Source of the DNA: Escallonia rubra
Lineage: Eukaryota; Streptophyta; Magnoliopsida; Escalloniales; Escalloniaceae
Direction: 5' to 3'
Assembly: GCA_033065855.1 (NCBI GenBank)
Contig: JAVXUO010002007.1
Location: forward strand, 1 to 64,000
Length of the DNA stretch: 64,000 nt
The translations under genes and the position numbers were made by a program. Positions 9,848-63,388 of the stretch are shown here, in pieces; position 1 is the first letter of the stretch, and each line of letters starts with the position of its first letter. The notes under the pieces were generated by a model that worked only from the letters and a program-made list of their open reading frames with translations, ran no database searches and was not told where the DNA came from.

Positions 9848-10084
9848 TAATAGATTAGATTAGTACCAAAAGCAAATAAACTAGAAGATATATTTTGAAC
9901 CTGAATAATCATTGCTACAAGAAATGGCCATCATTGTACAGAAAGAAACAAGATGGATACTGAATGATACTGAAAATCTTAAGTGATGATATTTTGAACT
10001 TTTGTGGTGCTGCTTACAAGAAAAAGTGTCAAAACCCTAAAAGCAAAGATAGAAAAACTGTGGAATATCCACCACAAGAAAATA

Positions 10085-10425
10085 TGTATTTTGCGACGGA
10101 GTTTTAGCGACGGAAGGTATTCCGTCGCTAAACATGTCTTTAAGCGACGGAATATCCCGTCGTTAAAAATCCGTTGCAAAATACTATTACCGACGGAAGA
10201 CACCGTCGGTAAAAGTATTTTGCAACGGATTTTTAACGGCGGACTTTTAGCGACGGAATTACCGTCGCTAAATATTTTTTATAAAATTAGTAATTTTGAG
10301 TTTTTTTTTAAAATTATTTAAACGACAGAATGTAACCGTCGCTAAAAAGTCTGTCGCAAAAAGTCTTTATAATAAGACATTCACCGACGGATTTTTAGCG
10401 ACGGTGTTATTCCGTCGCTAAAGAT
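10085..10425. repeat. CACTA left subterminal repeats
   Basis: About ten short copies of GCGACGGA/TCCGTCGC variants (for example TTAGCGACGGAATTACCGTC), many arranged as small palindromes. They match those at the right end. Confidence 0.85.
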
Positions 10426-11860
10426 CCTCCATTTAAAAACAGATCTGGTTTCTTTCTCTCTCCCCGTTCTCTCTCTGAAATTCTGCTCTCACCCACCCAC
10501 CGCCGTTCTCACCTCCGGCGACCCAGCTCCGGCGACACTCCCGTCCCCCACCCGACACCGCGCCACCAAGCCTTGCACTCCGGTCGTGCCACAAAGCCCT
10601 CCACTGTCGCCGAGCAACGAAACCCACCACCGTCGCCGCGCAACGAAACCAACCACTGCCACCGCACCACCAATGCCGCCGCCGTCGTACCCACCTCGAG
10701 ATTTGTATGTCAATTGCCCTAAATTATCTGAATTTTTTGTTATTTTGTCTTCAATTTAGGTTACATGCCCTAAATTATGCCTGGTTTATTTAGATTTGTA
10801 TGTCAATTTAGGTTCAATTTTTTGTTAATTTGTCAATTGCCCTAAATTATCTGAATTATTTATGATGTCATTCACTTTGTTGTTCAGACGGATCCTGCCC
10901 CATGTGACTGTTTGCAAATTCTTAGAGCATAGTTCGAAGTCTTTACCCACTGCTCTTGCTTTAGTTTCATTTGTCAAACAATACTTATTTGAGTTCAATA
11001 TAACCTTTAGATGTCCGAATCATGTCCTAGAACGTAGTGATAAACTAAACGTGGCAAACGTTATGGAAGGGGGAGGGAGCAGCATTCTCGGGGACGAGGT
11101 ACCCAGATTTCGGCACGTCCCAAAAGGGAAAGGAGGATGTGATAGGAAAGTTCACTCCTCATACAAAAACATTACTCGTACATTAGTGTGTCAACATAGT
11201 GCATTTCTGAATAAAATTTGAGGAATGCAGCGACGAGGTTAACTGCAAGTAGAATTCAAATTTAATTTTACCTAACCAATGATCTTCCACGTGTGCCCTA
11301 GCAAATTAAACATGCCCCACATACTCCCTTGTAGCAAGTGAACGATCAGAATTACAGTCTGCAACACGATTACATGTATAAAACCTTAATTAGAAAGAAA
11401 TAGTTACGGTTAATCCCGAAAAATGGGGGAAAAGGATGCTATTGAGAAGCGTGTGAGGCATGAAACTGAAGGTGTAATTTTGTGAGATTGATGCCCTAGT
11501 TGCTTCCCGATCGACAGAGAGACTGGTTCCGACTACACCTTGGGAACAATACGGGAAGCCCGCGACCGACGGCGAATTGCTTCCCGAGGCGTAGTCGGAA
11601 CCGGTTTTTTTCTATTTTCCGTTTCGGTTAAGGTTGTCTGTTCAGGGGCAAGTAAACGACAAAGAGAGCCAGTTATGATAAGTTTCGGTGCGTATCCTCG
11701 TATGGAGGGAGAGGTGGACCACTTATTCGCCGAGCTAAGCGACAGAGAGCGAACGTGAAAGCCTAGAGTTAACACGACCGTTAAAAAAAGGATAAAATAT
11801 GTGAACGAAAGTATTTTAGAAAGATCTGTGACTTAATAAATGTACATAATCTGGCGTTTG
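10426..11860. other. CACTA interior, leader-like and unassigned DNA
   Basis: 10440-10700 is pyrimidine- and C-rich and resembles the 5' UTR/first exon of a plant transcript. 10700-10860 repeats the phrase GCCCTAAATTATCTGAATT. A 119-codon open frame (10862-11221, +) has no recognised domain and may be accidental. A 15-bp imperfect inverted repeat around ACTGGTTCCGACTAC lies at 11522 and 11591. Confidence 0.4.
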
Positions 11861-11868
11861 GGTTGGTG

Positions 11869-12010
11869 GCTTTTTTTTTTGAATTTTTCAAATTGGAAAA
11901 TAATAGAACTGCAAATATGAGTAACCCTTGGTGGAAGGAGGAATCGAACACGAGATCTCGAGGTCACTTCTCGAGACCCCTTGCCAACTCAACCAAATTC
12001 TTTGGGTTTG
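11869..12010 (-). mobile_element. tRNA-derived SINE
   Basis: On the minus strand the unit reads TTGAGTTGGCAAGG (A-box-like), then a CTCGAG-rich middle, then GTGTTCGATTCCTCC, a good tRNA B box. It ends in an A-rich tail, seen as T11 at 11869 on the plus strand. Flanking copies of TTTGGGTTGGTGGC (about 11855) and GTTTGGTTGGTGGCC (about 12007) look like a 14-15-bp target duplication. Length about 140 bp. It inserted into DNA that is now inside the CACTA element. Confidence 0.65.
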
Positions 12011-12019
12011 GTTGGTGGC

Positions 12020-13700
12020 CTTTATCGTGTTGTTTTTCTAATCTTTATCCTGTTTCTAGGTTTTTTTTTTTGGGAAAGGTTAAAAATATATACCAGAAAG
12101 AAGGATCAGAATTTACGATAGTAGTTACGCATAAGCCAACACAACAAGTTGGATGATATCCCTATCCAATCGAGACAATGACTAACACAAAATAACCACA
12201 GGACAAATAGTCACAAGGAAGTACTAGGACGACGGAAGGATAAATGGAAGAGATTTGCCCTTCTGTACACCATCAAACCACTGTTGCGAACCTCCACGAC
12301 CCGACTGAAAAGCAAAAGTCGCCAAAGCCGATGAAAGAGACAACAGCGCCTCACACTGTTGATTAATCGGCTGAGAGGTATAAGAAGGGTATCAAATGCC
12401 CCATGGCTAACCATGGGAACATCACTATTTGTAGAACTTCTTCTTTCTCCATGGACAGGATGAAGGAAGAAGGGTTTTCTTTTTTTGGTCTTTCAAAGTA
12501 CTCAATGCAGCAAGAAGAAGTATTATAATGGAGATGGTTAGAGCTCGGCAGAAAACAAAACGAATTGAGTGGCTACAAACTGCCAGCCAAGTTCGACTGC
12601 CATTCGGCACCACCGACAATAAATAAATAAATTGGATTGAAAAATCCACCACCTCTGGTTTGAACTTATCTAGAAACTCAATTCTCATACCACATAAAAA
12701 AAACATGCAAAAATGTGAGAACGGTAGAAAGGACAATAAAATAATGACGATAGCAACATGATCTTTGCATTCTAGCGCCAGCATCACGAGGAACGAATTA
12801 AATCATCTGTAAACGAATATCTTCTTGTACCCCTGCAACCTTGCAAAGCTACGACTCTGCTGAGACTGCCTTTTCCGCACAACTCAGTAATCTCCACTAG
12901 CATGCACACAACAGCACTACACATCTGCCATGGAAGTTACCGAATTTATGAGCAGTTTTTAGTTTCCTTTTATAAAAATCCTTGTTAACTATGCACATTG
13001 CGAAGTTACCGAATTTATGGAATTTAGAAATGTTTTGCCTATTAGGTTGATGAACAGCACTTGTAAGATATCATGTGAAGTATAAAGAATCGGAAGCGTA
13101 GAAGCCGACACTAATACAAAGACCCAGATGCCCCGACGACGGACACTAATACACTGTATGGACACTTAGCATGCCCAGCTTGTTACAGTCATGGATCATG
13201 ATTAATCCGAGTCCCTTCCCAATGACTTAGTCAGAACATCCGCAAGTTTATTCGTTGCATTTACATTATAGTAGAAGTAAGTTCATCCTACGCATGTTCT
13301 CAGTTTAAGTGACAGTCTATGTTAGTATGGTTTGGTCGAAACATGACAGACCTGATTGGAAGCAATATGAATAGACACTAAAACTGCACTGGAGATGGAT
13401 TCCCAAAACCAAGCTTATATAAGACTACGGGAGCTGTCTTATTAGCGGTAATATGGAGCATGCGCCATAGCTTGATACTCTTACTCAGGACTTTATCGCA
13501 CAACAACATTTTGCTTCTTACTTTCCGTGACATAGGTGGCTATTTGGGTGGTGAAATGATGATGTGCGTAGTTGAGATTTTTGTGGTAGTCATTTTAGCT
13601 ACAACTCAATGTGGATCTGTTTTTTTAGCATCACTTTAACATAATTTGATAGATTTAATTCAGCTATGAAATTGATGCTCGTCGATTGAATAATCATCGA
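12020..13700. other. CACTA interior upstream of the B3 gene
   Basis: No gene recognised in about 1.7 kb. It presumably includes the promoter and 5' UTR of the B3 gene if the gene was captured whole. Open frames of 67-120 codons on the minus strand here lack motifs and have unlikely composition. Confidence 0.4.
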
Positions 13701-13727
13701 TTGGTTTTTCATGTTAAAGTAGGTTAA

Positions 13728-14170
13728 ATGGCTTCTGCTTCGGTGAACAGGGACGTTTCAGTCAACAGGCACTTCTTCAAGGTCATGATGCCTGGTTTTC
13801 ATACAGAACTTGTATGTCATCCCGCTTTCTCTATGTTTTCGTGTGTGTTAAAAATTTTATCTTTGGTTAAAAACTTACATGTCTTACTGTATTATGAATA
13901 TGTTAGGCCATACCGGTAGCATTTTGGCGATTGCTTACCACATTGAGATTTGAAGCAACTTTAACCAGCCGCAAGGGGTCATGGCTTGTTAAATTGAAGA
14001 AGAAGGTTGGCCAAGAGGTTCTTTGCTTCGAAGAGGGTTGGAACGAATTCGTGCAACAACATGACCTCCATCTAGGAGACTTTGTAATCTTTCAACACAT
14101 GGGGCAAATGCGTTTTCAAGTCAGCGTGTTTGATCAAAGCACTTGTGAAAAGCCTTTCCCCCAATGTTGA
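13728..14170 (+). CDS. REM-type B3 DNA-binding protein, two exons, inside a CACTA element
   Basis: Exon 1 is 13728-13811 (ATG to a phase-0 donor, CTT|GTATGT). The intron is 13812-13906 (ends TATGTTAG) and exon 2 is 13907-14170 (TGA). The product is 115 residues, essentially one B3 domain. It starts HFFKVMMPGFHTEL, runs through AIPVAFWRLL and GSWLVKLKKK, and ends DLHLGDFVIFQHMGQMRFQV. The order HFFKV...IP..F...SW.VK...FV..H.L..GDF..F matches B3 domains of the REM family, plant nuclear DNA-binding factors. Typical REM proteins carry several B3 domains and are longer, so this is either a minimal member or a captured piece. No stop or frame change is seen and both splice sites are good. It lies 0.6 kb inside the CACTA right end. 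Alternative: an unspliced dead capture kept by chance. Confidence 0.75.
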
Positions 14171-14439
14171 ACTCTAAGGCGTAATTAGACAATATTTTAA
14201 ATTAATCGCATCGGATATGTACATTTTGAACAATGTTGTGAACATTGACTATTTGTTTGATAATTTTAGGTTGTTAATTGTGATTATTGATCGATGATTT
14301 GTTAATCGATGATTTTAGATTGTTAATCGTGCATTTGATATATTGAGATTGTTGACGGAAGATGGGACCCAATTGGTTTGAATTTTTTATTACAGGTTTG
14401 GGCATTAAAAAATTAAAAAAAAATTAAAAAATGACTTTA

Positions 14440-14745
14440 ACTTTTAGCGACGGATTAATTCCGTCGCTAAACATTTTATCCCGTCGCTAATTTCGTAAAA
14501 AAGAAAATAAATTAAAGTACGTAAAACAGAATTAGCGACGGATATTCCGTCGCTAATTCAGAAATAAATCCGTCGCCAAACGTTCTATATTAGACGACGG
14601 ATTTTATAATTCCGTCGCAAAACTTTTAGCAACGGCCTTTTATACGAGGGACTTTTAGCGACGGTAATTCCGTCGCTAAAAGTTTTCGCGACGGAATATA
14701 GGCCTTTAGCGACGGGAAAATCCGTCGCTAAAGGCCTTATTCCTT
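14440..14745. repeat. CACTA right subterminal repeats
   Basis: Repeated TTAGCGACGGA/TCCGTCGCTAA motifs in both orientations, mirroring the left end. They occur between the B3 gene and the right CACTA terminus. Confidence 0.85.
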
Positions 14746-14754
14746 GTAGTGATC

Positions 14755-15480
14755 ATTGAAAGTTAAGCTACTAAATTTATTGCCTAAATAGTTCAGTTTT
14801 TTATATGTGTCCTGTTAAATCTCTTAAGTTTGGTTGATTCTTGGTTTTAAAGATACAACATTTAAGCTCCTAAGACATTTCGTCGTATAAACTTTGTTAT
14901 AGTCATAACTTTTTCCCGTTAAACACTTTACTTTCGACAAGTCTTTTCAGGTTAATTTTTGAACTTTTATTAATCACTTTACTAGAATTCAAACTTCTTC
15001 TTAATTTCACTTCCTAGACTTATATATGTGCCATCAAAACATATTACAGGAAATTATCTCTAAAAAATTTCTTTACTTTTATTACTGTACGATCAATCTT
15101 GTAGTATTTCGTGAGAGTTAGATATTTGTGGAACATGTTTGAGACTAATTACAATATCAGTTTACCTTCGATAACAAGATATAATATGAAACAGTTAGGA
15201 TTCTTTTTAGCGGTAACTTAATGTGACGAAAGAAATAAGTATGATAAATAGTTAAAAATATTGGTGATAATTGCCTTGAAAAATCCGGGTTTGAAAGTAA
15301 GACCATGTTTAATTAGCTTTTCATATTTCGAGTATTTGATTAATAGTTAACAACTGATTTATTGTTATAGTTTAATTATAATAGTCATATTGATTAATTT
15401 CGATTTTGTTTTTCACATAAATTCATAATATTTTTATTTCAAATTACTATATAACGTGCAAAACACGTGATCCTTACTAG
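14755..15480 (+). other. Helitron 3' terminal region
   Basis: AT-rich, no coding signal. Its last 115 bp resemble the remnant ending at 42879 and finish with the hairpin and CTAG terminus. Confidence 0.6.
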
Positions 15481-22658: not shown

Positions 22659-22912
22659 TTCTTAAGACTTTATTCCGCACTTTGTGTTGCATGTGTAGAA
22701 TCATTGTTTTCGAATTTCGTAATAGTTTTTCTAAAACAGCGTTTTCAAAATTTCGTTTCATATTTTGATTCTGCAGTACTTTATACTAAAATTATTTTCA
22801 GTTTCTGAATTTAATTTTAGTGATTACTATACTCTGTTTTCGTTTATAGTTTTTTGTATTAGACTGGACTGTTTATTAATTGTTGTTATAATCTGTTGAT
22901 AGATTTACAACA

Positions 22913-23942
22913 ATGGCTACTAGTGAAACCAATTCGGAAAGTGGACCGGTTAATCCCAACGTGCAACACAGTGGTGGGACTGTGTATGCGACGCCTTATG
23001 TGGCACCTACTCATGGTTCTGTTGGACATGGTGAAAGACCGGAAAAGTTCAACGGAAAAGATTTTAAGAGATGGCAACAGAAAATGTTGTTCTATCTTAC
23101 CACCTTAAATTTGGCAAGGTTCTTGCACGAGGATGCACCAGATCTTGGTGACAATCCTGACCGGCAAACAGTGGCTGCCGTGGATGCTTGGAAGCATTCG
23201 GATTTTTTGTGCAAGAACTACATCCTCAATGGATTGGACAATGCGTTGTATAACGTATACAGTCCAATGGCCAATGCGAAAGCATTGTGGGAATCCTTGG
23301 AAAGGAAATACAAAACGGAAGATGCCGGCTCAAAGAAATTTGTAGTCGGCAAATTCCTTGATTTCAAGATGATGGATTCTAAGACAGTGATTAGTCAAGT
23401 CCAAGAGTTTCAGCTTATTCTACATGATATTCATGCGGAAGGGATGGTACTTGGAGAGTCTTTTCAAGTGGCTGCTTTGATTGAAAAATTGCCACCTACT
23501 TGGAAAGATTTCAAGAACTATTTGAAGCATAAACGCAAGGAGATGAAGCTCGAGGATTTGATCGTCAGATTGAGGATTGAGGAGGATAATCGCCAGTTCG
23601 AGAAGAAGGCCGGTAATTATCATCATGAGGCCAAGGCAAACGTGGTCGAGCAAGGTCCATCAAAGAGGAGGAAAATTTCCGATTCCGATGGTCCAAGCGG
23701 AGCAAGCGGCTCAAATTTCAAAGGCGGTGAGAAGAAGAAGTTCAAAGGGAATTGCTTTGGGTGCGGCAAAGCTGGCCATCGTGCTAAGGATTGTCGCAAA
23801 AACAAAGGGAACTTTAAAGGAAAGAATTCTCAAGCCAATGTGACCGAAGTTACCAAAATCACCGAGGACGTGACAGATTTGAATTTATCTGCGGTGGTAT
23901 CCGAAGTCAACTTGGTTGGAAATCCCAAACAGTGGTGGGTAG
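22913..23942 (+). pseudogene. Copia gag region
   Basis: An open frame with the copia gag (UBN2-like) core and a CCHC knuckle [14 protein letters not shown]. It runs up to the point where the nested element begins. The protein would form the particle shell of the element. Treated as a fossil part. Confidence 0.85.
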
Positions 23943-24325
23943 TGTTGCTGCTAAAAATATGCTCCGCATATGTTGCGGAACCCGAGCCTGGAGCGATGAC
24001 CTGCAAGACAGAAAACGAGTGACCGCCGGGTGGGGTTCCCGGCGGAGAACTCTCCGATGCCTAAGTCAGAGCGCAGCTACATGATAATAACTCTGAAAAA
24101 GCATGAATTGTGTAATCTCCCTGATACCTGGAGGGGTAGACCCCTTTATATAGCTGTAGGAGGAGAGTCCTAGTAGGACTGGGCCGTGGGCCAGATGTGC
24201 TAGGATCGCGTTAGGATCCTCGAGGATCACGTCACAATCCTTAATAAGATAATAATTGATCTCCCAGTTTGACTGGGATTGCCGGGTATTCCCCAATTAT
24301 TGGGAGTTATATTTGAGCTATATCA
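23943..24325 (-). repeat. Nested element LTR, left (3' in element sense)
   Basis: Plus strand TGTTGCTGCTAAAAATATGC ... GAGCTATATCA. Nearly identical to 28011-28393. Confidence 0.9.
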
Positions 24326-24984
24326 TAAGCCCCCCACTTCCTTAGCTAAAAATGTTTGGCTGAGGAAGTTTATACCTGGTGTCTCGAGACACGCGTCAGA
24401 TTTGTAAGTGATTCTCATCCACTTGTAGGGGTAACAATATTTCTCTCTTCCATGTGCTCTGACCTAAGCGGGAGCTTAAGCCTTAGAACTTCGCCCAAGT
24501 AGGGCGCTAGAACCCTAGCTTTCGAGAGCCAAGTCTTAGAATGTCACCTGAGTAGGCTATTCGGAGTCATCTTTAGGAAGACGAATCATGGGATCTCGAG
24601 ATCCTTTAGAGGCTGTGCCCCATGGTAGCCTAACACAAAGCTGTGCATGCAACTTGTTGCATGTGCTAAGTGTTTGAATGTCCCCTCGAGGGGTCACCTC
24701 TCCTTGGAGGGTGTTCATTTTGTGCAAGTGTGTGTTCTTTGGCTCGAGCCGACCACATCATGCTTGCGTTTTACTTTGTCGCGAACTCTTATCATCAGCT
24801 AAGAGATGACAAAGAAGCCTCGCACTCACGCTTGGCTGGGTTTTGAATTGACAAAGAATGGTGGGGGGATGAAGTCTCATAGTCCTTTGCTGTTTCACGG
24901 GTTAGAACTGTAGCTAAACCGTTCGGATAGAACTCGAGCTCTATCATGTTGCCCTTGGGGGTGTTCGTCCCTCGAGGGACCACC

Positions 24985-26035
24985 CTTGAGGTTTGACGGA
25001 ACTTAAAGTCCTCATCATACGCGCCCTCGGGGTCAGATGGAGCTCGGAGCTCATGCAAATACCCTCGAGGGTTTAACGGAACTTAAGAGCTCTCGTCGTA
25101 CGCGCCCTCGGGGGCGGATGGAGCTCGGAGCTCATGAATATACCCTCGGGGGTTTGACGGAACTTAAGAGCTCTCGTCGTACGCGCCCTCGGGGGCGGAT
25201 GGAGCTCGGAGCTCATGAATATACCCTCGGGGGTTTGACGGAACTTAAGAGCTCTCGTCGTACGCGCCCTCGGGGGCGGATGGAGCTCGGAGCTCATGAA
25301 TATACCCTCGGGGGTTTGACGGAACTTAAGAGCTCTCGTCGTACGCGCCCTCGGGGGCGGATGGAGCTCGGAGCTCATGAATATACCCTCGGGGGTTTGA
25401 CGGAACTTAAGAGCTCTCGTCGTACGCGCCCTCGGGGGCGAATGGAGCTCGGAGCTCATGCAGATACCCTCGCGGGTTTGACGGAACTTAAGAGCTCTCG
25501 TCGTACGCGCCCTCGGGGGCGGATGGAGCTCGGAGCTCATGAATATACCCTCGGGGGTATGACAGAACTTAAGAGCTCTCGTCGTACGCGCCCTCGGGGG
25601 CGGATGGAGCTCGGAGCTCATGAATATACCCTCGGGGGTTTGACGGAACTTAAGAGCTCTCGTCGTACGCGCCCTCGGGGGCGGATGGAGCTCGGAGCTC
25701 ATGAATATACCCTCGGGGGTTTGACGGAACTTAAGAGCTCTCGTCGTACGCGCCCTCGGGGGCGGATGGAGCTCGGAGCTCATGAATATACCCTCGGGGG
25801 TTTGACGGAACTTAAGAGCTCTCGTCGTACGCGCCCTCGGGGGCGGATGGAGCTCGGAGCTCATGAATATACCCTCGGGGATTTGACAGAACTTGAGAGC
25901 TCTCGTCGTACGCGCCCTCGGGGGCGGATGGAGCTCGGAGCTCATGAATATACCCTCGGGGGTTTGACGGAACTTAAGAGCTCTCGTCGTACGCGCCCTC
26001 AGGGGCGGATAGAGCTCGTAAAAATACCCTCGAGG
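24985..26035. repeat. 81-bp tandem repeat array, about 12 units
   Basis: Twelve full units plus partial ends, each carrying TACGCGCCCTCGGGGGCGGA, GAGCTCGGAGCTCATGAATA and TTTGACGGAACTTAAGAGCT. The unit length is 27 x 3, so any frame without a stop in one unit stays open throughout. Long frames therefore occur on both strands (25037-26080 + and 25073-26146 -). The central units are almost identical, pointing to recent unequal exchange or slippage. It lies inside the nested non-autonomous LTR element. Confidence 0.92.
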
Positions 26036-26099
26036 GTTTCGGTCGAAGCAACGTGTACTTGTGGTTATGGCGCTGAATAAGAAGGCACAGGGCATTGAG

Positions 26100-28010
26100 C
26101 CCGTAATATGGCCGCTACTATGAAGCCCCCCTGTCTGAGAAGGCACAGGGCATTAAGCTCGTAATATTGCTGACATCATAAGATATGAAACTCCCCGCCT
26201 TTGAGAAGGCGTAGTTATATAAAGACGTCTTTTCGGCTTATATGTAGGGCCCAATCGCAAGAAGACCAGATGCGTTGGTAGCATGCGCTGGTGTGAACAT
26301 TTGACCGTTCATAGTCGGTCACTGTATGACAGGATAGATCACAAGATAATAAGAAATGTCGAGTCGGCAAGATGCTGCAGCAGAAACCCTAGGCATGACT
26401 TCCAGTTGCAGGGTGCTGTGAATTTGTTCCTTGCTTTATGAAGCAATTTATACGTCACCATTTAATGTTTGTTGGTGCGGTCTAAGCCCTTAATGCTTTT
26501 AAAAGGTGTGGCATGTGCGAAATAAAGGAGACCTCGCGGGTCTAAAATATAAATGTGCCTTTTTGTGGGGGTTAATGTAGAATTCTCTAAAAGGAGAGAA
26601 TGCACCTTCTAAATTGGTCTGTCCTTTTTGTCTTGACCGAACAGAGCTAATGCCTGAAGATAGATCTGACCACCATAGGGAGGCGGCAACGTCACGGCGA
26701 GACGGCGACGGTAAATCCGGCAGCTATTGCCAGCGGCGGCGTCTGCGGCTTTGCTAACGCACAGCAGGATGTGGTGCCAGGGAGTCGCTCGGCAATTGGC
26801 GCCGTCACCGTTTGCTTGCGGCGGGCAGGCGCGACGCTGGGGGAGCTCGCTGCTCAGATGGCGACAACCGGAATAGTGAGGCGAACCGGGCGACAGTGCT
26901 CCTCGGCAGATTGCAGCGGCAGACGGGTCGGTGATGGAAGCACTGTCGGCCGCAATTTGTGCCTCGACGGCATGGTTGCGCGGCGGACGGTGTCGATGGC
27001 GTAGATCTAACGGTGCTTGTTGCAAAATAAGGATCTGGGCCAAGGTGGCGGCGCTGCCATTGGTTGGTGGTCCTGCCCGGATGGATTAACGGCGCGAGGT
27101 CGGAGGTCTTTGACGGCGCAACATCGGAGATGGGCTGATTGGTTTCATTGTCGATGATGCACGGAGTGTTGCTGTGGCAGCAACATGCGGTCGTGGGGTT
27201 TGTTGGTGATAGCCTCCGGCTGTGTTGCTTCCTCCAAATTTTTTTTTTTTTCTTTGACGTTGTTCCCGCAGTTGTACGTCAATTGCAGGTTGTTGTCGTT
27301 GCCGGCGGTTTGTGACGAAGTGGTTGCACCGCTGAGAATCTTGGTTGAGGTGGCGCAGCGCAACGGCGAAGGAGCGGCGTTGGGGCGCAACGTGTCCTGG
27401 ACAGCGAGGTTGTAACCTTGCCGTTGGTGGTGGTGGTTCCCGTCGTCGCAGTGGCGACGGCGCCGTTACTGCTTCTGCTTCTTTTTTTTTTTTTCTTGAG
27501 TTATATTGTGCAGCTGCTCCGGCAGCTTAGCGGCGGTGGTCGGCGGTTTATAGTGCCCACGATCCCGTTGGTGATGAGGGACTGTTTCTCCGTCGGCCAT
27601 CTCGAGTTTTCTACGAAATCGGTGGCGATGGCGCGATGTCAAGGTGCTTGGCAGTGGTGCCATTGTCATAGGTTGCCGTGGAGTTGATCCAAAGAACGGC
27701 GGCGAGGTGGCGCCGTAAAAAAAGGGGAGGCCCACTGTGGTGGGTGCCCTGATTATGCGTGACACCGCTGGTAAGGTTTCGACCCATGGTGCGACGGTGC
27801 CGTGGAATGGCTTCTCCATGGTTCTCTTTTCTTTGTTTGGCAGAAACTTGAATCTGAAACCTGTGACGATAATTCAATCTGGAAATTTGTGGCGGCGGCG
27901 GTGGCTGTGTCAGTGGTTCCAACACGTTGTCGCCGGTAATTTGGGATAAACTGTTAAATTTTCTTGAGATCAAACGGTTAGGCTGGCGGGTCCCACGGAT
28001 GGCGCCAATC
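26100..28010. other. GC-rich interior of the nested LTR element
   Basis: Minus-strand leader side of the element. Several frames of 60-145 codons exist on both strands because of high GC, none with a recognised domain. T-runs occur at 27239 and 27482. Confidence 0.5.
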
Positions 28011-28393
28011 TGTTGCTGCTAAAAATATGCTCCGCATATGTTGCGGAACCCGAGCCTGGAGCGATGACCTGCAAGACAGAAAACGAGTGACCGCTGGGTG
28101 GGGTTCCCGACGGAGAACTCTCCGATGCCTAAGTCAGAGCGCAGCTACATGATAATAACTCTGAAAAAGCATGAATTGTGTAATCTCCCTGATACCTGGA
28201 GGGGTAGACCCCTTTATATAGCTGTAGGATGAGAGTCCTAGTAGGACTGGACCGTGGGCCAGATGTGCTAGGATCGCGTTAGGATCCTCGAGGATCACGT
28301 CACAATCCTTAATAAGATAATAATTGATCTCCCAGTTTGACTGGGATTGCCGGGTATTCCCCAATTATTGGGAGTTATATTTGAGCTATATCA
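28011..28393 (-). repeat. Nested element LTR, right (5' in element sense)
   Basis: Near-identical copy of 23943-24325. It is followed on the minus strand by the gypsy-type primer-binding motif. Confidence 0.9.
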
Positions 28394-31370
28394 GGTAGAC
28401 ACAGGTGTTACTCGACATGTGTGCTCCGAGCGAAGTATGTTTACTACGTATGAGAGCGCCAACAACGAGAATCTGTTCATGGGAAACTCTTCTTCTTCAA
28501 AGGTGCTAGGAATGGGCAAGGTGGTCTTAAAGATGACATCCGGAAAGGAATTGAGTCTCAACAATGTGCTTCATGTGCCAGACATTCGGAAGAATCTAGT
28601 GTCAGGCTCATTGTTGAGTAAGAATGGTTTCAAGCTAGTGTTTGAGAGCGATAAATTTGTACTCACTAAAAGTGGGATGTTTGTAGGAAAAGGGTACTTA
28701 TGTGATGGTCTGTTTAAGTTAAATGTAATGACCATCGTGCCTAAAGTTGTACCAAATTCTGATATTAATAAAATTATTTCTTCTGCTTACTTGTTGGAAT
28801 CTCCTAATTTATGGCATCGTAGATTATGTCATGTAAATTATGGTTCCATACAAAAGCTAGTGAAAAATGGTTTTTTGCCTAAAATGGATTTTGACTCACA
28901 TAAAGCATGTGAAATTTGTGTTGAAGCTAAAATGGCAAAAACGTCTTTCAAGTCAATTGAAAGAAGTACGGAACCTTTAAGTCTAATTCATAGTGACATA
29001 TGTGACTTAAAGGTGGTACAATCTAGAGGAGGAAAAAAGTATTTTATTACTTTTATTGATGATTGTACGAGATTTTGTTATGTATATTTGCTTAGAAGCA
29101 AGGATGAAGCCTTGGAAGCATTTATGCAATACAAAATTGAGGTTGAAAATCAACTTAGCAAGAAAATCAAAGTACTAAGAAGTGATAGAGGCGGAGAATA
29201 TGTTTTCCCTTTTGAAAAATTTTGTGCCGATCACGGAATCATTCATGAGACCACGGCACCGTATGCGCCTCAGTCAAATGGAATTGCTGAGCGGAAAAAT
29301 CGTACTTTAAAGGAAATGATGAATGCTTTGTTGATAAATTCTGGACTACCGGATAACTTGTGGGGGGAAGCGGTCTTAACCGCAAATCATATACTTAATA
29401 AAGTACCTCACAAGAAGTTGCAAAAGACACCTTATGAGCTATGGAAAGGTCGTCCTCCTTCCTTCAAATATCTTAAAGTGTGGGGGTGTCTAGCAAATGT
29501 AGCTATCCCACCACCTAAAATGGTCAAAATAGGACCTAAAACGGTCGATGTGATTTTTATTGGATATGCAAGTCATAGCTCGGCATATCGGTTCTTAGTG
29601 CATAAATCTGAAGTTGACGATATACACGTCAACACCATTATGGAGACAAGGAATGCACATTTCTTCGAGGATGTGTTTCCTTGTCGAGTGGCACAAGAAC
29701 AAAGTTCTTTAAAAAGAACTAGTATGAACCAAGAGCCCTCACAAGAGGAAGATGAGCAAAGACGTAACAAGAGAGCTAAAACGTCTACATCTTTTGGTCC
29801 TGATTTTCTAACATATTTGTTAGAAAATGAGCCTCGTACTTATAGAGAAGCAATGTCGAGTCCCGAAGCTCCTCATTGGAAAAAGGCTATTAATAGTGAA
29901 ATAGAATCCATCATGCAAAATCATACATGGGAACTGGTGGATCTTGCTCCTGGAAATAAACCATTAGGGTGTAAATGGCTTTTCAAGAGAAAGATGAAAG
30001 CTGATGGAACGATCGAGAAATATAAGGCCCGACTAGTTGTCAATGGATATAGACAAAAGGAAGGCCTTGATTATTTCGATACATATTCACCAGTTACAAG
30101 AATAACATCCATTCGAATATTGATAGCTATTGCAGCTATTAATAATCTTGAGATACACCAAATGGATGTGAAAACAGCTTTCCTAAATGGAGATCTAAAT
30201 GAAGAGATCTATATAGAGCAACCCGAGGGGTTTGTAGCTCCTGATCATAAGAGGAAGGTGTGCAAGCTTGTTAAGTCACTTTATGGACTAAAACATGCTC
30301 CGAAACAGTGGCATGAAAAGTTTGATAAAGTCATGATCGAAAATGGCTTTAGAATCAACGAATGTGATAAATGTGTCTATGTTAAAGGCACGGAAAAAGG
30401 ATATGTCATTGTTTGCCTTTATGTGGATGATATGCTCATTATCGGGAGCAATAATGAATTCATTAAGGCTACAAAGAAAATGTTGACCAGTAAATTTGAT
30501 ATGAAAGATATGGGTGTGGCTGATGTAATACTTGGTATGAAAATTACCAAAACATCAAATGGACTAGTCTTGTCACAGTCTCACTATATTGAGAAAGTGC
30601 TAGACAAATTTAAAAGTTACGATGATAGTCCAGTTAAGACACCACTAGATGTAAATTTACATCTAACAAAGAATACTGGTGAAGGAATATCTCAATTAGA
30701 GTATTCGCGTATAATTGGTAGCCTAATGTATATCATGAATTGTACGAGACCCGATATAGCATATGCTGTCAGTAAACTGAGTAGATATACTAGCAATCCA
30801 GGGAAGAATCATTGGATAGCTATTGTAAGAGTTTTAAGGTACTTAAAATATACCTTAAACTTTGGGCTGCATTATACAAGATATCCAGCTGTATTAGAAG
30901 GATACAGTGATGCCAACTGGATATCAGATTCTAATGAAACAAAGTCCACAAGTGGATATGTGTTTACATTAGGAGGATCAGCTATTTCTTGGAAATCCTC
31001 TAAACAGACATGTATTGCCAGATCCACTATGGAATCTGAATTCATTGCTTTAGATAAAGCAGGAGAAGAAGCGGAGTGGCTTCGTAATTTCTTGGAGGAT
31101 ATTCCAAATTGGCCTAAGCCTGTGCCACCAATTTGCATACATTGTGATAGTCAATCTGCAATTGGAAGAGCACAAAGCAGTATGTATAACGGCAAGTCTA
31201 GACACATACGTCGTAGACACAATACCGTTAGACAATTACTTTATAGTGGAATTATCTCTATTGACTATGTGAAGTCAAAGGATAATATTGCGGATCCGTT
31301 AACGAAAGCTTTGACTAGAGAGAAAGTAAATGTGTCATCAAGGGGAATGGGTCTTAAGCCTATGAACTAA
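28394..31370 (+). pseudogene. Copia pol region (protease, integrase, RT, RNase H)
   Basis: A long open frame resuming after the nested element. It has the protease region ([10 protein letters not shown]), the integrase zinc finger ([15 protein letters not shown]) and catalytic core ([34 protein letters not shown]). Next come the RT ([20 protein letters not shown] and the YVDD box CLYVDDMLI) and the RNase H end ([23 protein letters not shown]). The domain order is that of Ty1/copia. Treated as a fossil part of the element at 21754-32924. Confidence 0.93.
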
Positions 31371-47690: not shown

Positions 47691-47786
47691 TATTTGTACA
47701 CAACCAACACCAAACCAATTAAAACAGTTAACATAACTTAGATAAGAAATGATAAATACATTATACCATAGGCAAATGCGCTTACA

Positions 47787-48910
47787 GGCAATTTTGGCCT
47801 CTCCTCAACTGCCTCAAGCAACACATTTGCCTCTACTTCTGGTGCCTTGCCCTGCCCTTTGCATGTCCTCATATTATGCCCATACTTGCCACACTTAGTA
47901 CATGTCATTTTCACCCTCTTTCTCCCTAGCTTGGTAAGACTCTTTGGCTCTTCTACTTCTCTTCTTCTTACCTTCTTAGGCCTTCCTGGTTGAGCATGAT
48001 ATAGTGGGGGTAGCAGCTCAGGCTTGTCAACAGACTCCCATAGCAAAGGACCATTAATTGGGTAGATAAGATTTGAATAAATCTTAATATGTGCCTCTCT
48101 AGTGTAACATTCATCCACCCAATCTTCTGGCATCATCCCTCTATTGTTTCCATTTGCCTCATCAGAATAAATGACAGAGATAGCATGAGCACATGGAATG
48201 CCACTCAAGTCCCATCTTCTACAAGTACAAGTACTCTTCTCTAAGTTCACAACATATTGAACCCCATGTGGAAGATTAAGCTAGTACTCACTCCCACCAT
48301 TCCAACTACATATACAACTACTGCATCTGTTCTTGTTCCTTTCCAAGATTTCTTGAATGTGAGGGGTAAGCCTACCATGTTGTTTCTTCATATCATCTTT
48401 TTTTATATACATTCTCTTCATTAATAGTGCCCTTATCCCCTCAAACATGGTAATAATAGGCTTATCTCTAGTTTCTAAGATGAAGCTATTAAACTACTCA
48501 CAGTAGTTGTTTAGTAGCTTATCACATTTGGGGAATGTGGAGAAATGAGACCTACTCCAATGTCTAGGGTGCACATTCATTAACCATTCATGTGCCTTGG
48601 GGTCTGCCTCTTTTATCTGCTCCATAATTCTGGCAAAATACTTGACACATGACACCTTGCTTGCATTTTGCATAAACTCTTTCATCTTCTCTCCCTTGAA
48701 TAGTTTTTTGAAGTTCTTATAAATGTGTAAATTGCAAAACATGTGCTCTACATCTGGCAACACATCATGCAGTGCTGGAACCAAACCCTAAGATACAAGT
48801 CATTGTCCACTGTTAACAAAAAAATTTGCATTACTAAGTATGAATTATTAATTTGACTAAATTATAAATTATTTGGTTACCTTCAGTTGATCTGAGATGA
48901 ATGCCCACAT
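47787..48910 (-). pseudogene. MULE transposase, C-terminal half (DDE part, SWIM, CCHC)
   Basis: Minus strand from 48910: WAFISDQLK with the second catalytic Asp, then an intron (48880-48788). It continues GLVPALHDVLPDVEHMFCNL and HPRHWSRSHFSTFPKCD, with NNYCE carrying the expected catalytic Glu, followed at once by an in-frame TAG (about 48491). A second stop lies near 48282. The SWIM finger (CTCRRWDLSGIPCAHAI) and a CCHC knuckle (CTKCGKYGHNMRTC) follow. This is the standard MURA order. Confidence 0.9.
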
Positions 48911-51900
48911 TGTAATACCCTAACTTAATCTAATTATGAGTTAGATTAATTAAGGACGTAAATGTAATCGATGGCATTATTTTTTTTATCATTAACGAAG
49001 TAATTAGGATAAATGAAGAGCTAATTTGGCTTTGGGGTGAAACTGTAATTTTGTGAAAGTATGGGGTCCAAGTGAAAATGTGGAAAAAGTGAGGGGGTTA
49101 AAGTGCAATTTTGCAAATTAGTGATGTGTGGCACCATGAGGTGTCGTGAGGAGGAGGTGGAAAGAATAATAAGTGAGCACCTCATGCTTGTAGAGAGGTG
49201 ACTCATTAATTAAAAAGATAAAGTATGGGGTTATGTGGGAGTGGGACTAGAAACAAAAAAAAGGGGAAAAGAAAGAAGGAGAATAAGAACACTCGGCAGA
49301 AGAGAGAAACAAAGGAAGAAAAGAGAGAAAAGGAGGGAAAAACGGGAAGAAGGAAAGAATAGGAAACAAAAAAAAAAAAAAAAAGAACGAATGAATCAAA
49401 ATGAAAGATAAGGTAAATCCCTTATTCATATATTGATTTTATGTGTATTGTATATTGGTGCGCATCCATAGTAGGTTCAGAGTATGTTGTGTGTGCGTGG
49501 GTGATGTGTGTGTGCACATGTGAAGAACAGCAGCACAGCGCTGCTGTGCGTGCTTTCCGTGTGTGTGAGTGCATGGCTAGGGTGCTCTGTGTGTTGATGG
49601 GGCGCACGGTGAGGGGGCTAGTGCCCTGCAGGAGCTTGAAAGGGGGAAAGGGAGAGGAAAAGGAAGAAGGCCGCAGCTGGTGCTGCTGCCATGTGAGTGC
49701 AGGGGGCATGGTGATGGAGGAAAAGGGAGGGGGAAGGTAGCGTGGGAAGTGGGGAGGGTGTAGGTAGTGTTTTTGTGTGTGTTTACAAAGAAATTGGTAA
49801 AGAAAAGAGGTTGAATCCCATGGCCGCGAAGTTGAGAAGCTCGGTAGTGGGGAAGAAGATGAAGTGCAGGTGCGTGAATAGTGTGGGTTTGATTCATTTA
49901 TACATGATTAGTGATTGTAATGGTCACTAAAAGTGGTAGGGTTAATTCAGTCCTTTGATTGAATTTTTAAAAATAGTTAGGGTCAGATCTAACCAAAGTG
50001 CAAACAAGAGACCCTAGCTATTTTTAGGAGACCTGTATTGTGAAAAATGTTCAGATTTTTCCAAGGTCGGGAAGGGGGAGAACGGCTGCGGGAAGTTTGG
50101 AACTTTATAGTGAAATTTAAAATATCAAACAAACGCGGTTTTGGGCAAAATTTTTATGAGGACTCTATGAAGCTGAGACGTTCCATTTCCCAAGAATTCG
50201 GGTCATTTCGAAGTCGTTAGCTATTTTTTTGACCGAACGGGCTTTTAAGCGCTCGGTCCTGACACCAATTTGGGATTTTTGAGCGAAAATTTTATAAAAT
50301 ACTTTTTAGCTCAGAAATGATTTTAGGACGCTTAAAATAGCATTTTAAAGCGGTTTTGAGATTTTTCTGGTACCGGGAACCCTCAGGGGGCATTTTGGTA
50401 ATTTGCCACCGGAGAGGGGTATTTTGGTAATTTTTTCAGTAAAAGTTTTTGAAGGACTTGTTAGTTCGATAGGGGTTGTAAATTCCTGAAAGGTTGTTTT
50501 GAAGTTGATTTGGGGTGTTGTGGTGGTAGTGAACCCTTAGGGGTATTTTGATAATTTGTCAGGTTGGCGCTAAATTTTAGGGAACGCATGTAATTCAGCG
50601 TTCGAAATGGTGGAAAGTGAGGAATGATGTTAATACGTTGAAATAATGAGATAGTGGCTACTGCTAATGCGTTGGTAAGTTAGGTTAAGGATCCAATTAT
50701 TGGATCGGATTAACGAGCTATCATAAGACGCTATAAATGTCAAGTGGGAAGGGGTAGAATAAGGAGTGCGTATATGTTGAATGATGACTAACGAGCAGGA
50801 TATGATTTGACTAGGTGATGCAGCTCGTTGCGATCAGAGATTGAGAGTCGCTTCGGCTATAAGCCAATCAGGTAAGGACAATGTGGTTCTGATATGCTAA
50901 TTCATTGTTTCGATTAGCATGCCATGTTGATGACGTTTATGTTGGACTCTTACTGTTATGGATTGACACCGGTAGTCATTGTGACCGGTATACGTGTATT
51001 TGAATTGTGCTGTTGAGGACTTAGGGTAGAATAAATTCCCTTGGTCCGCCCTGTTGATAGAATTTATTTAATGAGGATGATGCGTGTCCTAGTATGCTAT
51101 GATTCGATTCGATTAGCATACCTGATGTCGATGATGATATTGTGTAGGAGTTGTTGTGTGATGGTTGTGAGATGCCGGCAATTATTGATAGCCGATATCT
51201 CTTCTCTTTGAGAACACTATTGAGGACTTTTGGCAACTTCTCCCGAGTCTGCCCTATCGTTGATGATGATGCTGTAGAGATCGTTGCGTTGTTGTTATGA
51301 AATGTCAGCACTTATTGATAACCGACATTTCTCTTATGTAAGAATGTTGTTGAGGGCTTGCGGTAATCTTCTCCCAAGTCCGCCCTGTTGATGATGTTAC
51401 GTTGAACTCTTGTTGTTAGGTCTGAACACCGGTTGATCTTCTGATCCGGTATTCCTTGTTGAGCTGTGTTGTTGAGGACATAAGGTGGAATAAATTTTCC
51501 CTTAGTCCGCCCCGTTAATGATGTCTTGTTGCATGGCTGTAACGTGGTTAGGGAAAGCACTCTAAATGAGCTCCCTACCTGTTGACAGTGTCTCTTCTAT
51601 TTATTTGAGACTGAGATGAACATCCCATAAAATGGGACATCAATATGAGGAGGATGGCCTGTGAAACATGGTCACTGGCAAAAAAAAGGATGTAGGGCGC
51701 GCGAGTCGAGTCTGTCATGTCTGGTCAAGTCCAGTATGTCGTATCTGAGTTGCATTGCATTTGATTTTCTTTTGATGTTAATGATTTTAATGACTTGTAT
51801 TTCGTTGATGTTTATCTTTTCAATTTCCTATTTTATTGTTCACTTGCATAGTCAGTCAGTCAGTCTGTCGGTCGATCTTGTCCATGAGGAGGTGGCAGTA

Positions 51901-52499
51901 ATGTTGTTCTATTGGGCCTTAAAGCTGCTCAGTGTAACGAAAGAAAAATTATCATTTGACAATTAATGTTGATGCTGAAATTTATTGACTACTCTTGATT
52001 CATTGTTATCGTTAAGATGATTATTATTCCTCCGAGTCTTTTGAATCATTTGTACACAATACTTCTCGTGTTGTCTTTACTGGGCGATTTGTGCTCATTC
52101 CTTATGTTGTATTGTGCAGGCTATGAGGTTGATCAAGGAGAACCTTCTAGAAAGGAAAAAGACACAAGCTAAAAGGTTGAGTAAGGGGATCAGCTGTGTG
52201 AGGTAAGAACAGCTAGGAATGGTGGAATGAAGAATGTGTTGCGAGATAGGTTGATAAGAGTCCTACGACTACAGTCGTATATTAGGTTGTATACTTTCAT
52301 GTTGTTTAAAGACTTAAAAGTCTTCCGCTGCAATATGATGTATGTTTGTAAGAAATTTTTTGTAAGAACGCAATTTGGAGCGTCTATTAATGATGTATGA
52401 GTATGAGGATGTAGTTGCTATGTATTCAGCACAGGGTTTTGAAAGTGATTATGGTTGATAACTCAGCCCGGTGATGTCACTTGGGTTGAGGGTGTCACA
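48911..52499. mobile_element. Solo LTR, 3.6 kb, probably Ty3/gypsy (Del/Tekay-like)
   Basis: Starts TGTAATACCCTAAC and ends GAGGGTGTCACA, with a perfect 5-bp duplication CACAT (48906-48910 and 52500-52504). No gag or pol. Gypsy elements of the Del/Tekay group have LTRs of this unusual length; the family call is inference from size and ends. It lies within the MULE transposase gene between the first and second catalytic regions. Internal repeats of CCGCCCTGTTGATGATG-like phrases occur at 51040-51510. Age cannot be read from a single LTR. Confidence 0.8.
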
Positions 52500-52504
52500 C
52501 ACAT

Positions 52505-53640
52505 AGACTGATTATCACAATTAATTCCAACATCTCTGCAAAACAGCTGTATGAACCATGTCCAAGAACTTTTGTTTTCAGCTTCAACCACAGCATTGGC
52601 AACTGGGAACATGCAATTGTCTGCATCTATTCCAACAGCAGACAACAATTGACAAGGGAATGGTCCCTTCAAAAAACAGCCATCTAATCCCACAAATGCC
52701 CTACAGTGCTTAAAACCAGCCTTACATGCTCCCAAACAAACATACAGTTTCTCGAATCTGTTCTCACTCTCCCCACTGTCAGACACCTTTTTTACAACCA
52801 TTGTTATGTTGGGATTAGTCCTACAAACCTCACCACAGTATTCCCATATCCTTTTGTACTGTTCTCTGTGGCTTCCATTAATCTGATCTAGGGCCTTTCT
52901 CTTAGCTTTATAGGCCTGGGTCTTGCGAATACCAAGTGTGAACTCCTCCCTTGCAGCATCTCTCAAAGCTGGCATTGGTAATCCAGGATTTGACCTAATT
53001 CTATCCATATAAGTCTTAGACAACCACTTTGAAGTTGCCCTCCTATGATAATAAACAGAAGGACAATCATGTTCGTTAAAGTATGTCTTTACTTGCCAAG
53101 TTGTGGTCCCCTGCATGATAGACCCTAAAATGCACCACTGACATTGCACACTCCCAATGCATATGGCCCTCACTCTACACTTGTCATTTTTAACAAACTC
53201 TATCTCATTCCTATTCATAATAGCATATTCTTTAATTGCATCTTTAAGTACTTCTCTACTGGAAAATGTCATGCCCAAAGCAAATTCAGGATTTTTCATG
53301 TCCCTTTCAGGCCTAAACTGTGGATACCTCACCCTGCCACCACCTTCTTCATGTTCTTCTTCAGAAGGTAAACTCCTTAACTCATCTGATGATTCACATG
53401 CTCCCTCTCTTCCCCTATCCACAACCTCATTCACCTCCTGACCACAAATGTTCTCATTAATCAGCTTTCCCTTCCCTTTATTATCATCTGTATCGTCCTC
53501 ACTGAAGTCATAGTCACTATCCTTAAATGCTTCATATTCTACCTCTGAGTCGGTGTTATCCTCACTATCAGTCTCATGTCCCTACTCTACAATCAGTCCC
53601 TCTCTTTGAGTCATTGTCTGCCTCTTTTCATTGTTATTAT
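52505..53640 (-). pseudogene. MULE transposase, N-terminal half (MuDR domain and first DDE residue)
   Basis: An acidic lead-in (DSDYDFSEDD) precedes the MuDR DNA-binding region (MTFSSREVLKDAIKEYAIMN, CQWCILGSIMQGTTTWQVKT). The first catalytic motif reads FVGLDGCFLKGPFPCQLLSA, and WTWFIQLFCRDVG follows. The frame is interrupted at 52504 by the solo LTR. An in-frame TAG near 53581 separates it from the N-terminal exon. Confidence 0.9.
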
Positions 53641-63352: not shown

Positions 63353-63370
63353 TAGCTCATTAGATCCATC

Positions 63371-63377
63371 ATTTATA
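63371..63377 (-). promoter_or_regulatory. Probable TATA box, oxidase gene 2
   Basis: The minus strand reads CTATAAATGATGG. An RY-type CATGCATG (about 63381-63388) sits just upstream. Confidence 0.45.
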
Positions 63378-63388
63378 GTGCATGCATG

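What the first reader, a model, noticed from the sequence alone, without database searches (positions are those of the whole stretch)
10070..14751. CACTA element carrying an apparently intact, spliced B3/REM gene
The sequence shows CACTA termini, a 3-bp ATC duplication and subterminal GCGACGG repeats enclosing a two-exon B3 frame with good splice sites and no stop. CACTA elements are known to capture gene pieces, but an undisturbed complete B3 domain with its intron suggests recent genomic capture, or a gene kept in use. Mobile B3 factors could carry new DNA-binding activity around the genome (inference).
Basis: partly seen in the sequence, partly recalled or inferred. Interest (0 to 1): 0.8.

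Follow-up and report, generated by a model that had tools for sequence, protein, structure and literature searches.

The report
Jumping genes carrying a B3 gene
The stretch is one copy of a mobile DNA family that has spread hundreds of copies of a small plant regulator-type gene (B3) through this plant's genome, and relatives of the same gene also sit beside the transposase of a second, unrelated kind of mobile DNA, so it looks like an old passenger or helper gene of mobile DNA rather than a fresh one-off capture.

Summary
Window 10070-14751 is a complete CACTA-type element (3-bp ATC duplication, 16 exact TAGCGACGG repeats) with an open two-exon, single-domain B3 gene. The left end reads CACCA, not CACTA.

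The "recent capture" reading does not hold. The B3 gene is a fixed part of a young, high-copy, non-autonomous CACTA family: 491 matches of a B3 36-mer in the 566-Mb genome (control 0), and B3 in 38 of 38 non-self places among the 40 best matches to the non-coding 3' end. Elements share both ends and the B3 module but swap their middles. Within this burst B3 evolves neutrally, so openness of one copy only shows youth.

Older relatives of the gene (exon 2 56-91% identical) sit in other CACTA families and, in 36 of 115 listed copies, on the same strand 1.8-2.4 kb (once 6.3 kb) downstream of a FAR1-type Mutator-like transposase (about 0.5 pairs expected by chance per list). Host B3 exons sampled are at most 44% identical, so the capture looks old.

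Most likely: an old transposon-resident B3 gene that passed between two transposon superfamilies, perhaps binding the elements' own repeat arrays. Binding, expression and any benefit are inferred, not shown.

The parts
10067..10069 (.). target-site duplication ATC, left copy
10070..10081 (+). left terminal inverted repeat CACCACAAGAAA (variant of CACTACAAGAAA)
10091..10424 (.). left subterminal array of TAGCGACGG/CCGTCGCTA repeats
   Evidence: 7 exact TAGCGACGG copies here; inverted and direct repeats
10437..10703 (+). inferred 5' leader (untranslated) exon of the B3 gene; its part 10437-10567 is similar to sequence upstream of the B3 ATG in Mutator-type copies
   Evidence: 69% over 134 bp to L129; L122 and L130 leaders 80% alike over 121 bp; transcription not tested
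10704..13722 (+). inferred first intron (GTATGT ... TAG) that holds the family's exchangeable middle segments
   Evidence: splice sites by inspection only; middle segments shared as modules by other elements
13728..13811 (+). B3 coding exon 1 (ATG)
13812..13906 (+). B3 coding intron, GTATGT...TTAG
13907..14170 (+). B3 coding exon 2, ends TGA
14440..14739 (.). right subterminal array of TAGCGACGG/CCGTCGCTA repeats
   Evidence: 9 exact copies here
14740..14751 (-). right terminal inverted repeat CACTACAAGGAA (on the minus strand)
   Evidence: shared by the copies aligned
14752..14754 (.). target-site duplication ATC, right copy

Best explanation
This is one young copy of a high-copy, non-autonomous CACTA family whose standing cargo is a single-domain B3 (REM-like) gene of 115 codons. 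Shown: both ends and the B3 module are common to the family, middles are exchanged, no transposase was found in the window element, and relatives of the gene occur in other CACTA families and directly downstream of a FAR1-type Mutator-like transposase. Inferred: the element is moved in trans by the transposase of a related CACTA (abundant in this genome, with similar ends); the B3 gene is transcribed from a leader at the element's left end with the middle spliced out as an intron; the gene entered transposons long ago from a host REM-type gene and passed from a CACTA element to a Mutator-like one. Most likely role if it has one: an element-encoded accessory DNA-binding protein that recognises the elements' own repeat arrays (as TnpA or VANC proteins do). 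I put about 0.9 on the anatomy and family picture, 0.7 on CACTA-to-Mutator transfer, and only about 0.35-0.4 on an accessory function as against a passenger gene.
For: 491 B3 36-mers with up to 3 mismatches, reversed control 0; 900 family 3' ends with up to 3 mismatches, control 0, and 76 of the 100 listed exact 3' ends have a listed B3 within 1.1 kb on the same strand (a lower bound, since the B3 lists are capped). All 33 fetched non-coding-ranked copies plus 5 held before carry B3: 38 of 38. Complete related element with C-type B3 and TGT duplication in L130. Transposases with related ends: ends of L002, L003, L005, L006 are 72-81% like the window's ends over alignments of 226-415 bp; PF02992 gave 150 matches, 150 scored of 2228 candidates, many with frames over 700 residues; one lies between the ends of L005 and L006, and inside the 3' end of that element, where this family has B3, is a weak Transposase_24-like frame (E = 0.0047, below the curated cut-off). 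Mutator link: FAR1 (6.2e-12) and MULE (1.7e-14) domains; 28 pairs with the E-type B3 list and 17 with the F-type list, all on the same strand, 27 of 28 and 17 of 17 at 1.75-2.41 kb, about 0.49 expected each; together 36 of the 115 listed transposase copies. Transfer from CACTA: D-, E- and L122-type genes are followed by a short relic of the CACTA repeat region (51 bp at 84% in L129; read by eye also in L122, L124). Mutator-type B3 rows form one group (96/92). Constraint among CACTA families A, B2, C: omega about 0.35, lnL -539.3 against -542.9 at omega 1.
Against: No element with a CACTA transposase and B3 together was found. 79 of the 115 listed FAR1-type copies have no B3 in the two capped lists. 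Young copies show no purifying selection. Mutator-type families give omega about 1-1.5, which fits decay or fast change as well as use. The F-type copy L151 has no CACTA relic. The tree does not fix the root of the transposon clade, so transfer in the other direction is not excluded by it. CACTA ends in whose inner 1.5 kb I saw no B3 have the same GCGACGG repeats, so the repeats do not depend on B3. No Mutator ends or target duplications were established.
Confidence: 0.65

Rival explanations
1. Pure passenger: the B3 gene was caught once by a CACTA lineage and has been carried along since; open frames reflect only the youth of the copies and the recency of common ancestors.
For: Neutral N:S inside the burst (42:16 against 46.6:17.4); CDS and intron diverge alike (1.5% and 1.7%); Mutator-type omega about 1 or more; 5 of 38 copies not chosen by protein already carry a clear lesion.
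Against: Gene kept at the same place with open frame across CACTA families and beside a second transposase; no stop among the eight rows where about 8.8 are expected over the tree or 3.5 on inner branches (several rows were found because their frames are open, so this is weaker than it looks); CACTA-family omega about 0.35.
Confidence: 0.45
2. Recent capture of a host REM gene by this one element.
For: Intact splice sites and frame.
Against: Hundreds of copies, several diverged families, nearest sampled host exons at most 44% identical.
Confidence: 0.03
3. The gene began in the Mutator-like element as its second gene and was later caught by CACTA.
For: In the Mutator-type copies read (L122, L129, L128, L151) leader and B3 are contiguous and stand next to a transposase frame; the unrooted tree allows it.
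Against: CACTA-type repeat relic behind the gene in L129, L122 and L124; host-rooted trees place the root among CACTA genes, with weak support.
Confidence: 0.2
4. Domesticated host gene family dispersed by chance near transposon ends.
For: B3/REM genes are a large host family (clusters on C1471, C1869, C2145).
Against: Same 3' terminus behind the copies, different flanks outside it; 38 of 38.
Confidence: 0.02

Closest known systems
Non-autonomous CACTA (En/Spm) elements with captured host sequence, e.g. those of Chenopodium (PMC8978399, abstract and passages seen) and soybean Tgm-type elements (recalled)
   Same: CACTA ends, subterminal repeats, captured sequence
   Different: The cargo is one whole, spliceable, open gene kept at a fixed place by hundreds of copies and several families, not scattered fragments; the passages seen in PMC8978399 report gene fragments and extra domains of other kinds, and 'b3 domain' occurs 0 times in its main text
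Jittery-group Mutator-like elements (FAR1 at the transposase N-terminus; PMC6446971, passages of its table seen)
   Same: FAR1 plus MULE domains in the transposase beside the E-type B3 gene of L128
   Different: That table passage gives one ORF for the dicot/monocot Jittery subgroup; here a B3 gene follows the transposase in at least 36 of 115 listed copies. Membership of that subgroup was not tested by a tree
VANC proteins of Arabidopsis VANDAL elements (PMC5735166, abstract and passages seen)
   Same: Element-encoded DNA-binding protein, short motif repeated in arrays in the element's non-coding DNA (analogy only)
   Different: VANC has DUF1985/DUF287 domains, not B3; no binding or methylation effect has been shown here
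Plant REM/B3 genes such as At1g16640 (solved structure 1yel) and VRN1 (4i1k)
   Same: B3 domain; best PDB match 1yel, E = 0.0028
   Different: Host exons sampled are at most 44% identical; this gene lies in transposons. The name REM for the host exons is recalled, not from a call

Membership tests
CACTA (En/Spm) superfamily | terminal inverted repeats CACTA...TAGTG | tested here: met
   Right end CACTA, left end CACCA; 12-bp ends 1 mismatch each from CACTACAAGAAA; exact CACTA ends in L130
CACTA (En/Spm) superfamily | 3-bp target-site duplication | tested here: met
   ATC at the window element; TGT at L130; no other copy was tested on both sides
CACTA (En/Spm) superfamily | subterminal repeat arrays | tested here: met
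   16 TAGCGACGG against 0.09 expected
CACTA (En/Spm) superfamily | Transposase_21 gene (autonomous members) | tested here: not met
   No stop-to-stop frame over 130 aa in the window element and no similarity outside the repeats to the transposase loci held; so the element counts as non-autonomous; transposases with related ends exist elsewhere
B3 DNA-binding domain family | full-length B3 domain above Pfam cut-off | tested here: met
   49.1 bits, cut-off 30.1, positions 1-100 of 101
B3 DNA-binding domain family | sequence-specific DNA binding | not testable with these tools
   needs EMSA or DAP-seq
Mutator-like (FAR1/Jittery type), for the D/E/F relatives only | FAR1 and MULE domains in the transposase | tested here: met
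   L128: FAR1 and MULE; the L129 piece scanned gave MULE
Mutator-like (FAR1/Jittery type), for the D/E/F relatives only | long terminal inverted repeats and 8-10 bp duplication | tested here: inconclusive
VANC-type anti-silencing factor (works like) | binds the element's array motif and removes methylation | not testable with these tools
   only the arrays are shown: 12 TAGCGGACG in 1.5 kb of L151, 0.00 expected

The most novel reading that the evidence does not exclude
Two unrelated DNA-transposon superfamilies of one plant share an element-encoded B3 protein that recognises their own repeat arrays, TAGCGACGG in CACTA and TAGCGGACG in the FAR1 Mutator-like family (cores differing by one inserted G), and so acts as a horizontally exchanged anti-silencing or transposition helper: a plant transcription-factor domain turned into transposon machinery.
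Probability: 0.25. Interest if true: 0.87.

Novelty: new variant of a known kind. Interest (0 to 1): 0.62.

Why it matters
Transposons often pick up pieces of genes, but a whole regulator-type gene that stays as standing cargo over many transposon generations, and that appears in two transposon superfamilies, would show gene exchange between selfish elements and a likely new accessory function. It also means that hundreds of B3 'genes' in this genome belong to transposons and should not be counted as plant transcription factors. The repeat arrays next to the gene give a direct binding test.

Tried and rejected
Recent single capture: rejected by copy number and by the diverged families. Chance enclosure by ends: rejected. 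A CACTA element carrying both transposase and B3: looked for by eye in the listed, capped positions only; none found; the nearest case, C2450 (transposase at 6137, B3 at 18203, both +), was not followed. Selection inside the burst by a protein-ranked set was set aside as biased and replaced by the non-coding-ranked set; from that set 6 of 39 rows with indels or runs (L067, L079, L080, L081, L084, L085) were left out of the variant count. Subfamily differences inside the A type were too few to decide. Pairwise dN/dS gave 0.19-1.00 by plain Nei-Gojobori on single copies and 0.53-1.33 with transition-weighted sites on consensus exons, with wide intervals; since transversions outnumber transitions between families the weighting was unsuitable and the codon-model grids were used for the statement. 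That the first grid parameter is omega was checked on toy data. The 'CACTA' set includes L122, which lies in Mutator context; A, B2 and C alone gave the same answer. IQ-TREE runs printed likelihoods but no omega. Host parent: not found; the Pfam list held 150 of 1397 candidates; 21 exons were compared, of which L146, L147, L149 proved to be transposon-type. Structure prediction was not run: the spliced protein is not contiguous in the DNA and Pfam already settles the domain. Donor of the element's middle: C2737 holds window 10900-12343 in two pieces at 99% and 93% split by about 750 bp that looks like an inserted small element; whether it is donor or sister copy is undecided. Papers: the titles and abstract starts in the listings for CACTA with B3 domain, FAR1 with MULE and B3 domain, Pack-MULE with B3 domain and transposon-encoded factors pointed to no earlier report; only this open library was searched and most listed papers were not opened. 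PMC12487180 was opened for passages and was irrelevant.
Full report
The thing itself. The element runs from 10070 to 14751. Its left end is CACCACAAGAAA and its right end, read on the minus strand, CACTACAAGGAA; ATC flanks both ends. TAGCGACGG occurs 16 times in the window, all inside the element near its ends, with 0.09 expected. The B3 gene has exons 13728-13811 and 13907-14170, a GT...AG intron and 115 codons; Pfam B3 covers positions 1-100 of 101 with E = 5.8e-13; the closest solved chain is At1g16640, E = 0.0028. No stop-to-stop frame over 130 aa is in the element, so no transposase.

Copy number. The window's own genome is held (566,129,122 bases in 3222 contigs, unnamed). The B3 protein gives 173 matches, with 150 of 1959 candidates scored, so this is a lower bound. 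A 36-base word of exon 2 with up to 3 mismatches occurs 491 times, its reversed control 0 times. The last 30 bases of the element occur 900 times with up to 3 mismatches, control 0, and 76 of the 100 listed exact ones have a listed B3 within 1.1 kb on the same strand; the other 24 may have unlisted ones or none. CACTACAAGAAAA occurs 3047 + 3176 times against 179 + 156 for the control, so CACTA elements in general are very abundant here.

Family structure. Of the 28 copies first fetched other than the window itself and the overlapping contig (L009, L012-L038), 25 are similar to the window up to its right end (14751-14757) and no further, and the other three (L017, L028, L029) stop at 14696 in that alignment but have the same end; the flanks differ. 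Upstream the homology breaks at a few recurring places (window 13532, 13563, 13020, 12933), and copies share other middles among themselves. The window's middle 10900-13500 is found whole in four other loci (C866, C1021, C373, C1156) and in contig C1970, whose end overlaps this contig; pieces of it occur in others (40 of 404 candidates scored). Of 38 best left-end matches other than the window and C1970, 20 have a listed B3 at the right place, giving elements of 3.08-4.87 kb. So left end, B3 module and right end travel together and the middles are exchanged.

Is the openness of the frame meaningful? To avoid choosing copies by their protein I ranked copies by the non-coding stretch 14175-14751 (40 of 3597 candidates scored) and took the B3 region of all 38 non-self places among the 40 best: 33 fetched and 5 already held. 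All 38 carry B3. Five have a clear lesion (L063 stop, L067 deletion, L080 and L084 frameshift near the end, L087 splice donor); the other 33 are open with GT...AG, two of them short of one codon (L079, L081) and one with a run of F (L085). In 16 of the 33 rows counted a stop replaces codon 114 of 115. In those 33 rows (the window among them, 6 of 39 dropped) I counted 42 non-synonymous, 16 synonymous and 2 nonsense variants; the mutation spectrum of the same rows predicts 46.6, 17.4 and 4.7; pairwise divergence is 1.5% in the coding part and 1.7% in the intron. This is neutral evolution after a recent burst. The intact frame of one copy is therefore expected and says little.

Older relatives. 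The Pfam B3 search over the genome (150 of 1397 candidates scored) showed a second repeated set of B3 exons. Fetched examples fall into B2 (L108, L109, L114, L119; exon 2 89-91% identical to the window's, ends TTCCTTGTAGTG in three and TTTCTTGTAGTG in L114), C (such as L112, L120, L121; about 72-79%, L122 85%), D (L116) and E (L123-L126). Between the window's type and the others the exon-2 protein identity is 91% (B2), 82% (C), 82% (D), 65% (E) and 56% (F, below). L130 holds a complete 3.0-kb CACTA element with a C-type gene and a TGT duplication. The intron acceptor is kept in 17 of 18 rows read (L119 has it changed), and 16 of the 18 exon-2 frames run to the usual end: L118 is altered at its end and L123 has a stop one codon before the last.

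The second transposase. Around L128 (E type) and L129 (D type) the B3 gene follows frames with FAR1 and MULE domains, or MULE in the L129 piece; in both loci the transposase is split into several frames. With the E-type B3 (150 listed rows) and the transposase (115 listed rows) as queries, 28 pairs lie within 8 kb, all on the same strand, 27 of them 1.75-2.41 kb apart and one 6.3 kb; 0.49 pairs would be expected by chance. With an F-type B3, which gave 240 matches (150 candidates scored; most listed rows 95-100% identical), 17 pairs appear within 8 kb, all on the same strand and 2.0-2.4 kb apart; one more, beyond that limit, lies on the other side. Together 36 of the 115 listed transposase copies have a listed B3; the other 79 have none in these capped lists. 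Several of the paired transposase frames are open over 780 or more residues. The spacing holds for C-like genes too: C2921 (L122) and C1035 have a B3 about 2.2-2.3 kb from the transposase in the listings.

Direction of transfer. The leader before the B3 ATG in Mutator-type copies is similar to sequence at the left end of the CACTA elements (L122 with L130, 80% over 121 bp; window with L129, 69% over 134 bp). In L130 about a kilobase and in the window about three lie between leader and ATG; in L122 and L129 leader and ATG are joined. Behind the gene L129 has a 51-bp stretch 84% like the CACTA repeat region (window 14455-14505), read by eye also in L122 and L124; L151 (F) lacks it. The Mutator-type genes form one group in the tree (96/92; L122 was not labelled Mutator there and falls with the C type). 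The transposon genes as a whole are one side of a branch against 17 host exons (82/81) and against 6 host exons that I chose from these (100/100). The root within the transposon clade is weakly placed. I infer CACTA to Mutator, at about 0.7; the C-like L122 in Mutator context may mean more than one transfer.

Selection over the long run. Codon-model grids on consensus or representative exon 2 give omega about 0.35 for the CACTA types A, B2 and C (lnL -539.3; -542.9 at omega 1), about 1-1.5 for the Mutator types and about 0.75 for all (-1085.9; -1086.8 at omega 1). About 179 substitutions over the tree contain no stop where about 8.8 would be expected, or 3.5 on inner branches (P about 0.03); several rows were found because their frames are open, so the whole-tree figure overstates. 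Constraint is thus suggested for CACTA, not shown.

Parent gene. The closest host exons sampled are 37-44% identical (L134, L141, L142). A closer parent outside the 150 listed exons is possible.

How it may work. Shown: arrays of short inverted repeats flank the gene in both superfamilies, TAGCGACGG in CACTA and TAGCGGACG in Mutator-like copies (12 in 1.5 kb of L151, 0.00 expected; 12 in L129, 0.03 expected). Known from others: VANC proteins of Arabidopsis VANDAL elements bind short motifs that form tandem repeats in the element's non-coding DNA and induce loss of methylation (PMC5735166, abstract and passages); TnpA of En/Spm binds subterminal repeats (recalled). Inferred: the B3 protein binds these arrays. 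Against: CACTA ends in whose inner 1.5 kb I saw no B3 have the same GCGACGG repeats, so the motif does not depend on B3.

What is new. Gene capture by CACTA elements is known, including in Chenopodium (PMC8978399, abstract and passages), and the dicot/monocot Jittery subgroup is tabled with one ORF (PMC6446971, passages). A whole B3 gene as standing cargo of a CACTA family and as neighbour of a FAR1-type transposase was not apparent in the listings. I rate it a new variant of a known kind.

Noticed in passing
window 1 to about 14790 and contig C1970 end: The end of contig C1970 (L010, 99.8% identical through the B3 half of the element and its right flank; left end matched) repeats this contig's element, so the two contigs seem to overlap or to be alleles; the C1970 copy was not counted as an independent insertion.
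   Followed up: partly
window 22892-31370: Copia-like frames (name by eye; 22892-24022 and 28341-31370) are separated by a segment framed by a 300-bp direct repeat 4068 bp apart (99%), which holds an 81-bp unit repeated 12.7 times with long open frames on both strands.
   Followed up: no
window 57369-59066 and 61709-63403, minus strand: Two tandem 565-566 residue frames with FAD_binding_4 and BBE domains, berberine-bridge-like oxidases.
   Followed up: no
window 47741-53581, minus strand: A separate MuDR-type Mutator-like element (DBD_Tnp_Mut and MULE in one frame, SWIM in another), with no FAR1 match in the two frames scanned.
   Followed up: no
L123 968-1366, L124 987-1367, L128 6986-7417 (minus): An antisense frame of about 127-144 residues follows the E-type B3 gene in several copies; the L123 version has no Pfam match up to E = 1.
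   Followed up: partly
C2737:40150-42360 (L152): The element's middle occurs here split by about 750 bp with inverted ends and a TTA on both sides, which by eye looks like a small inserted element.
   Followed up: partly
whole genome G000: Many CACTA transposase frames are open, with dozens of rows of equal score, mostly at 761 residues, among the 150 scored of 2228 candidates, which suggests a recent CACTA burst.
   Followed up: no
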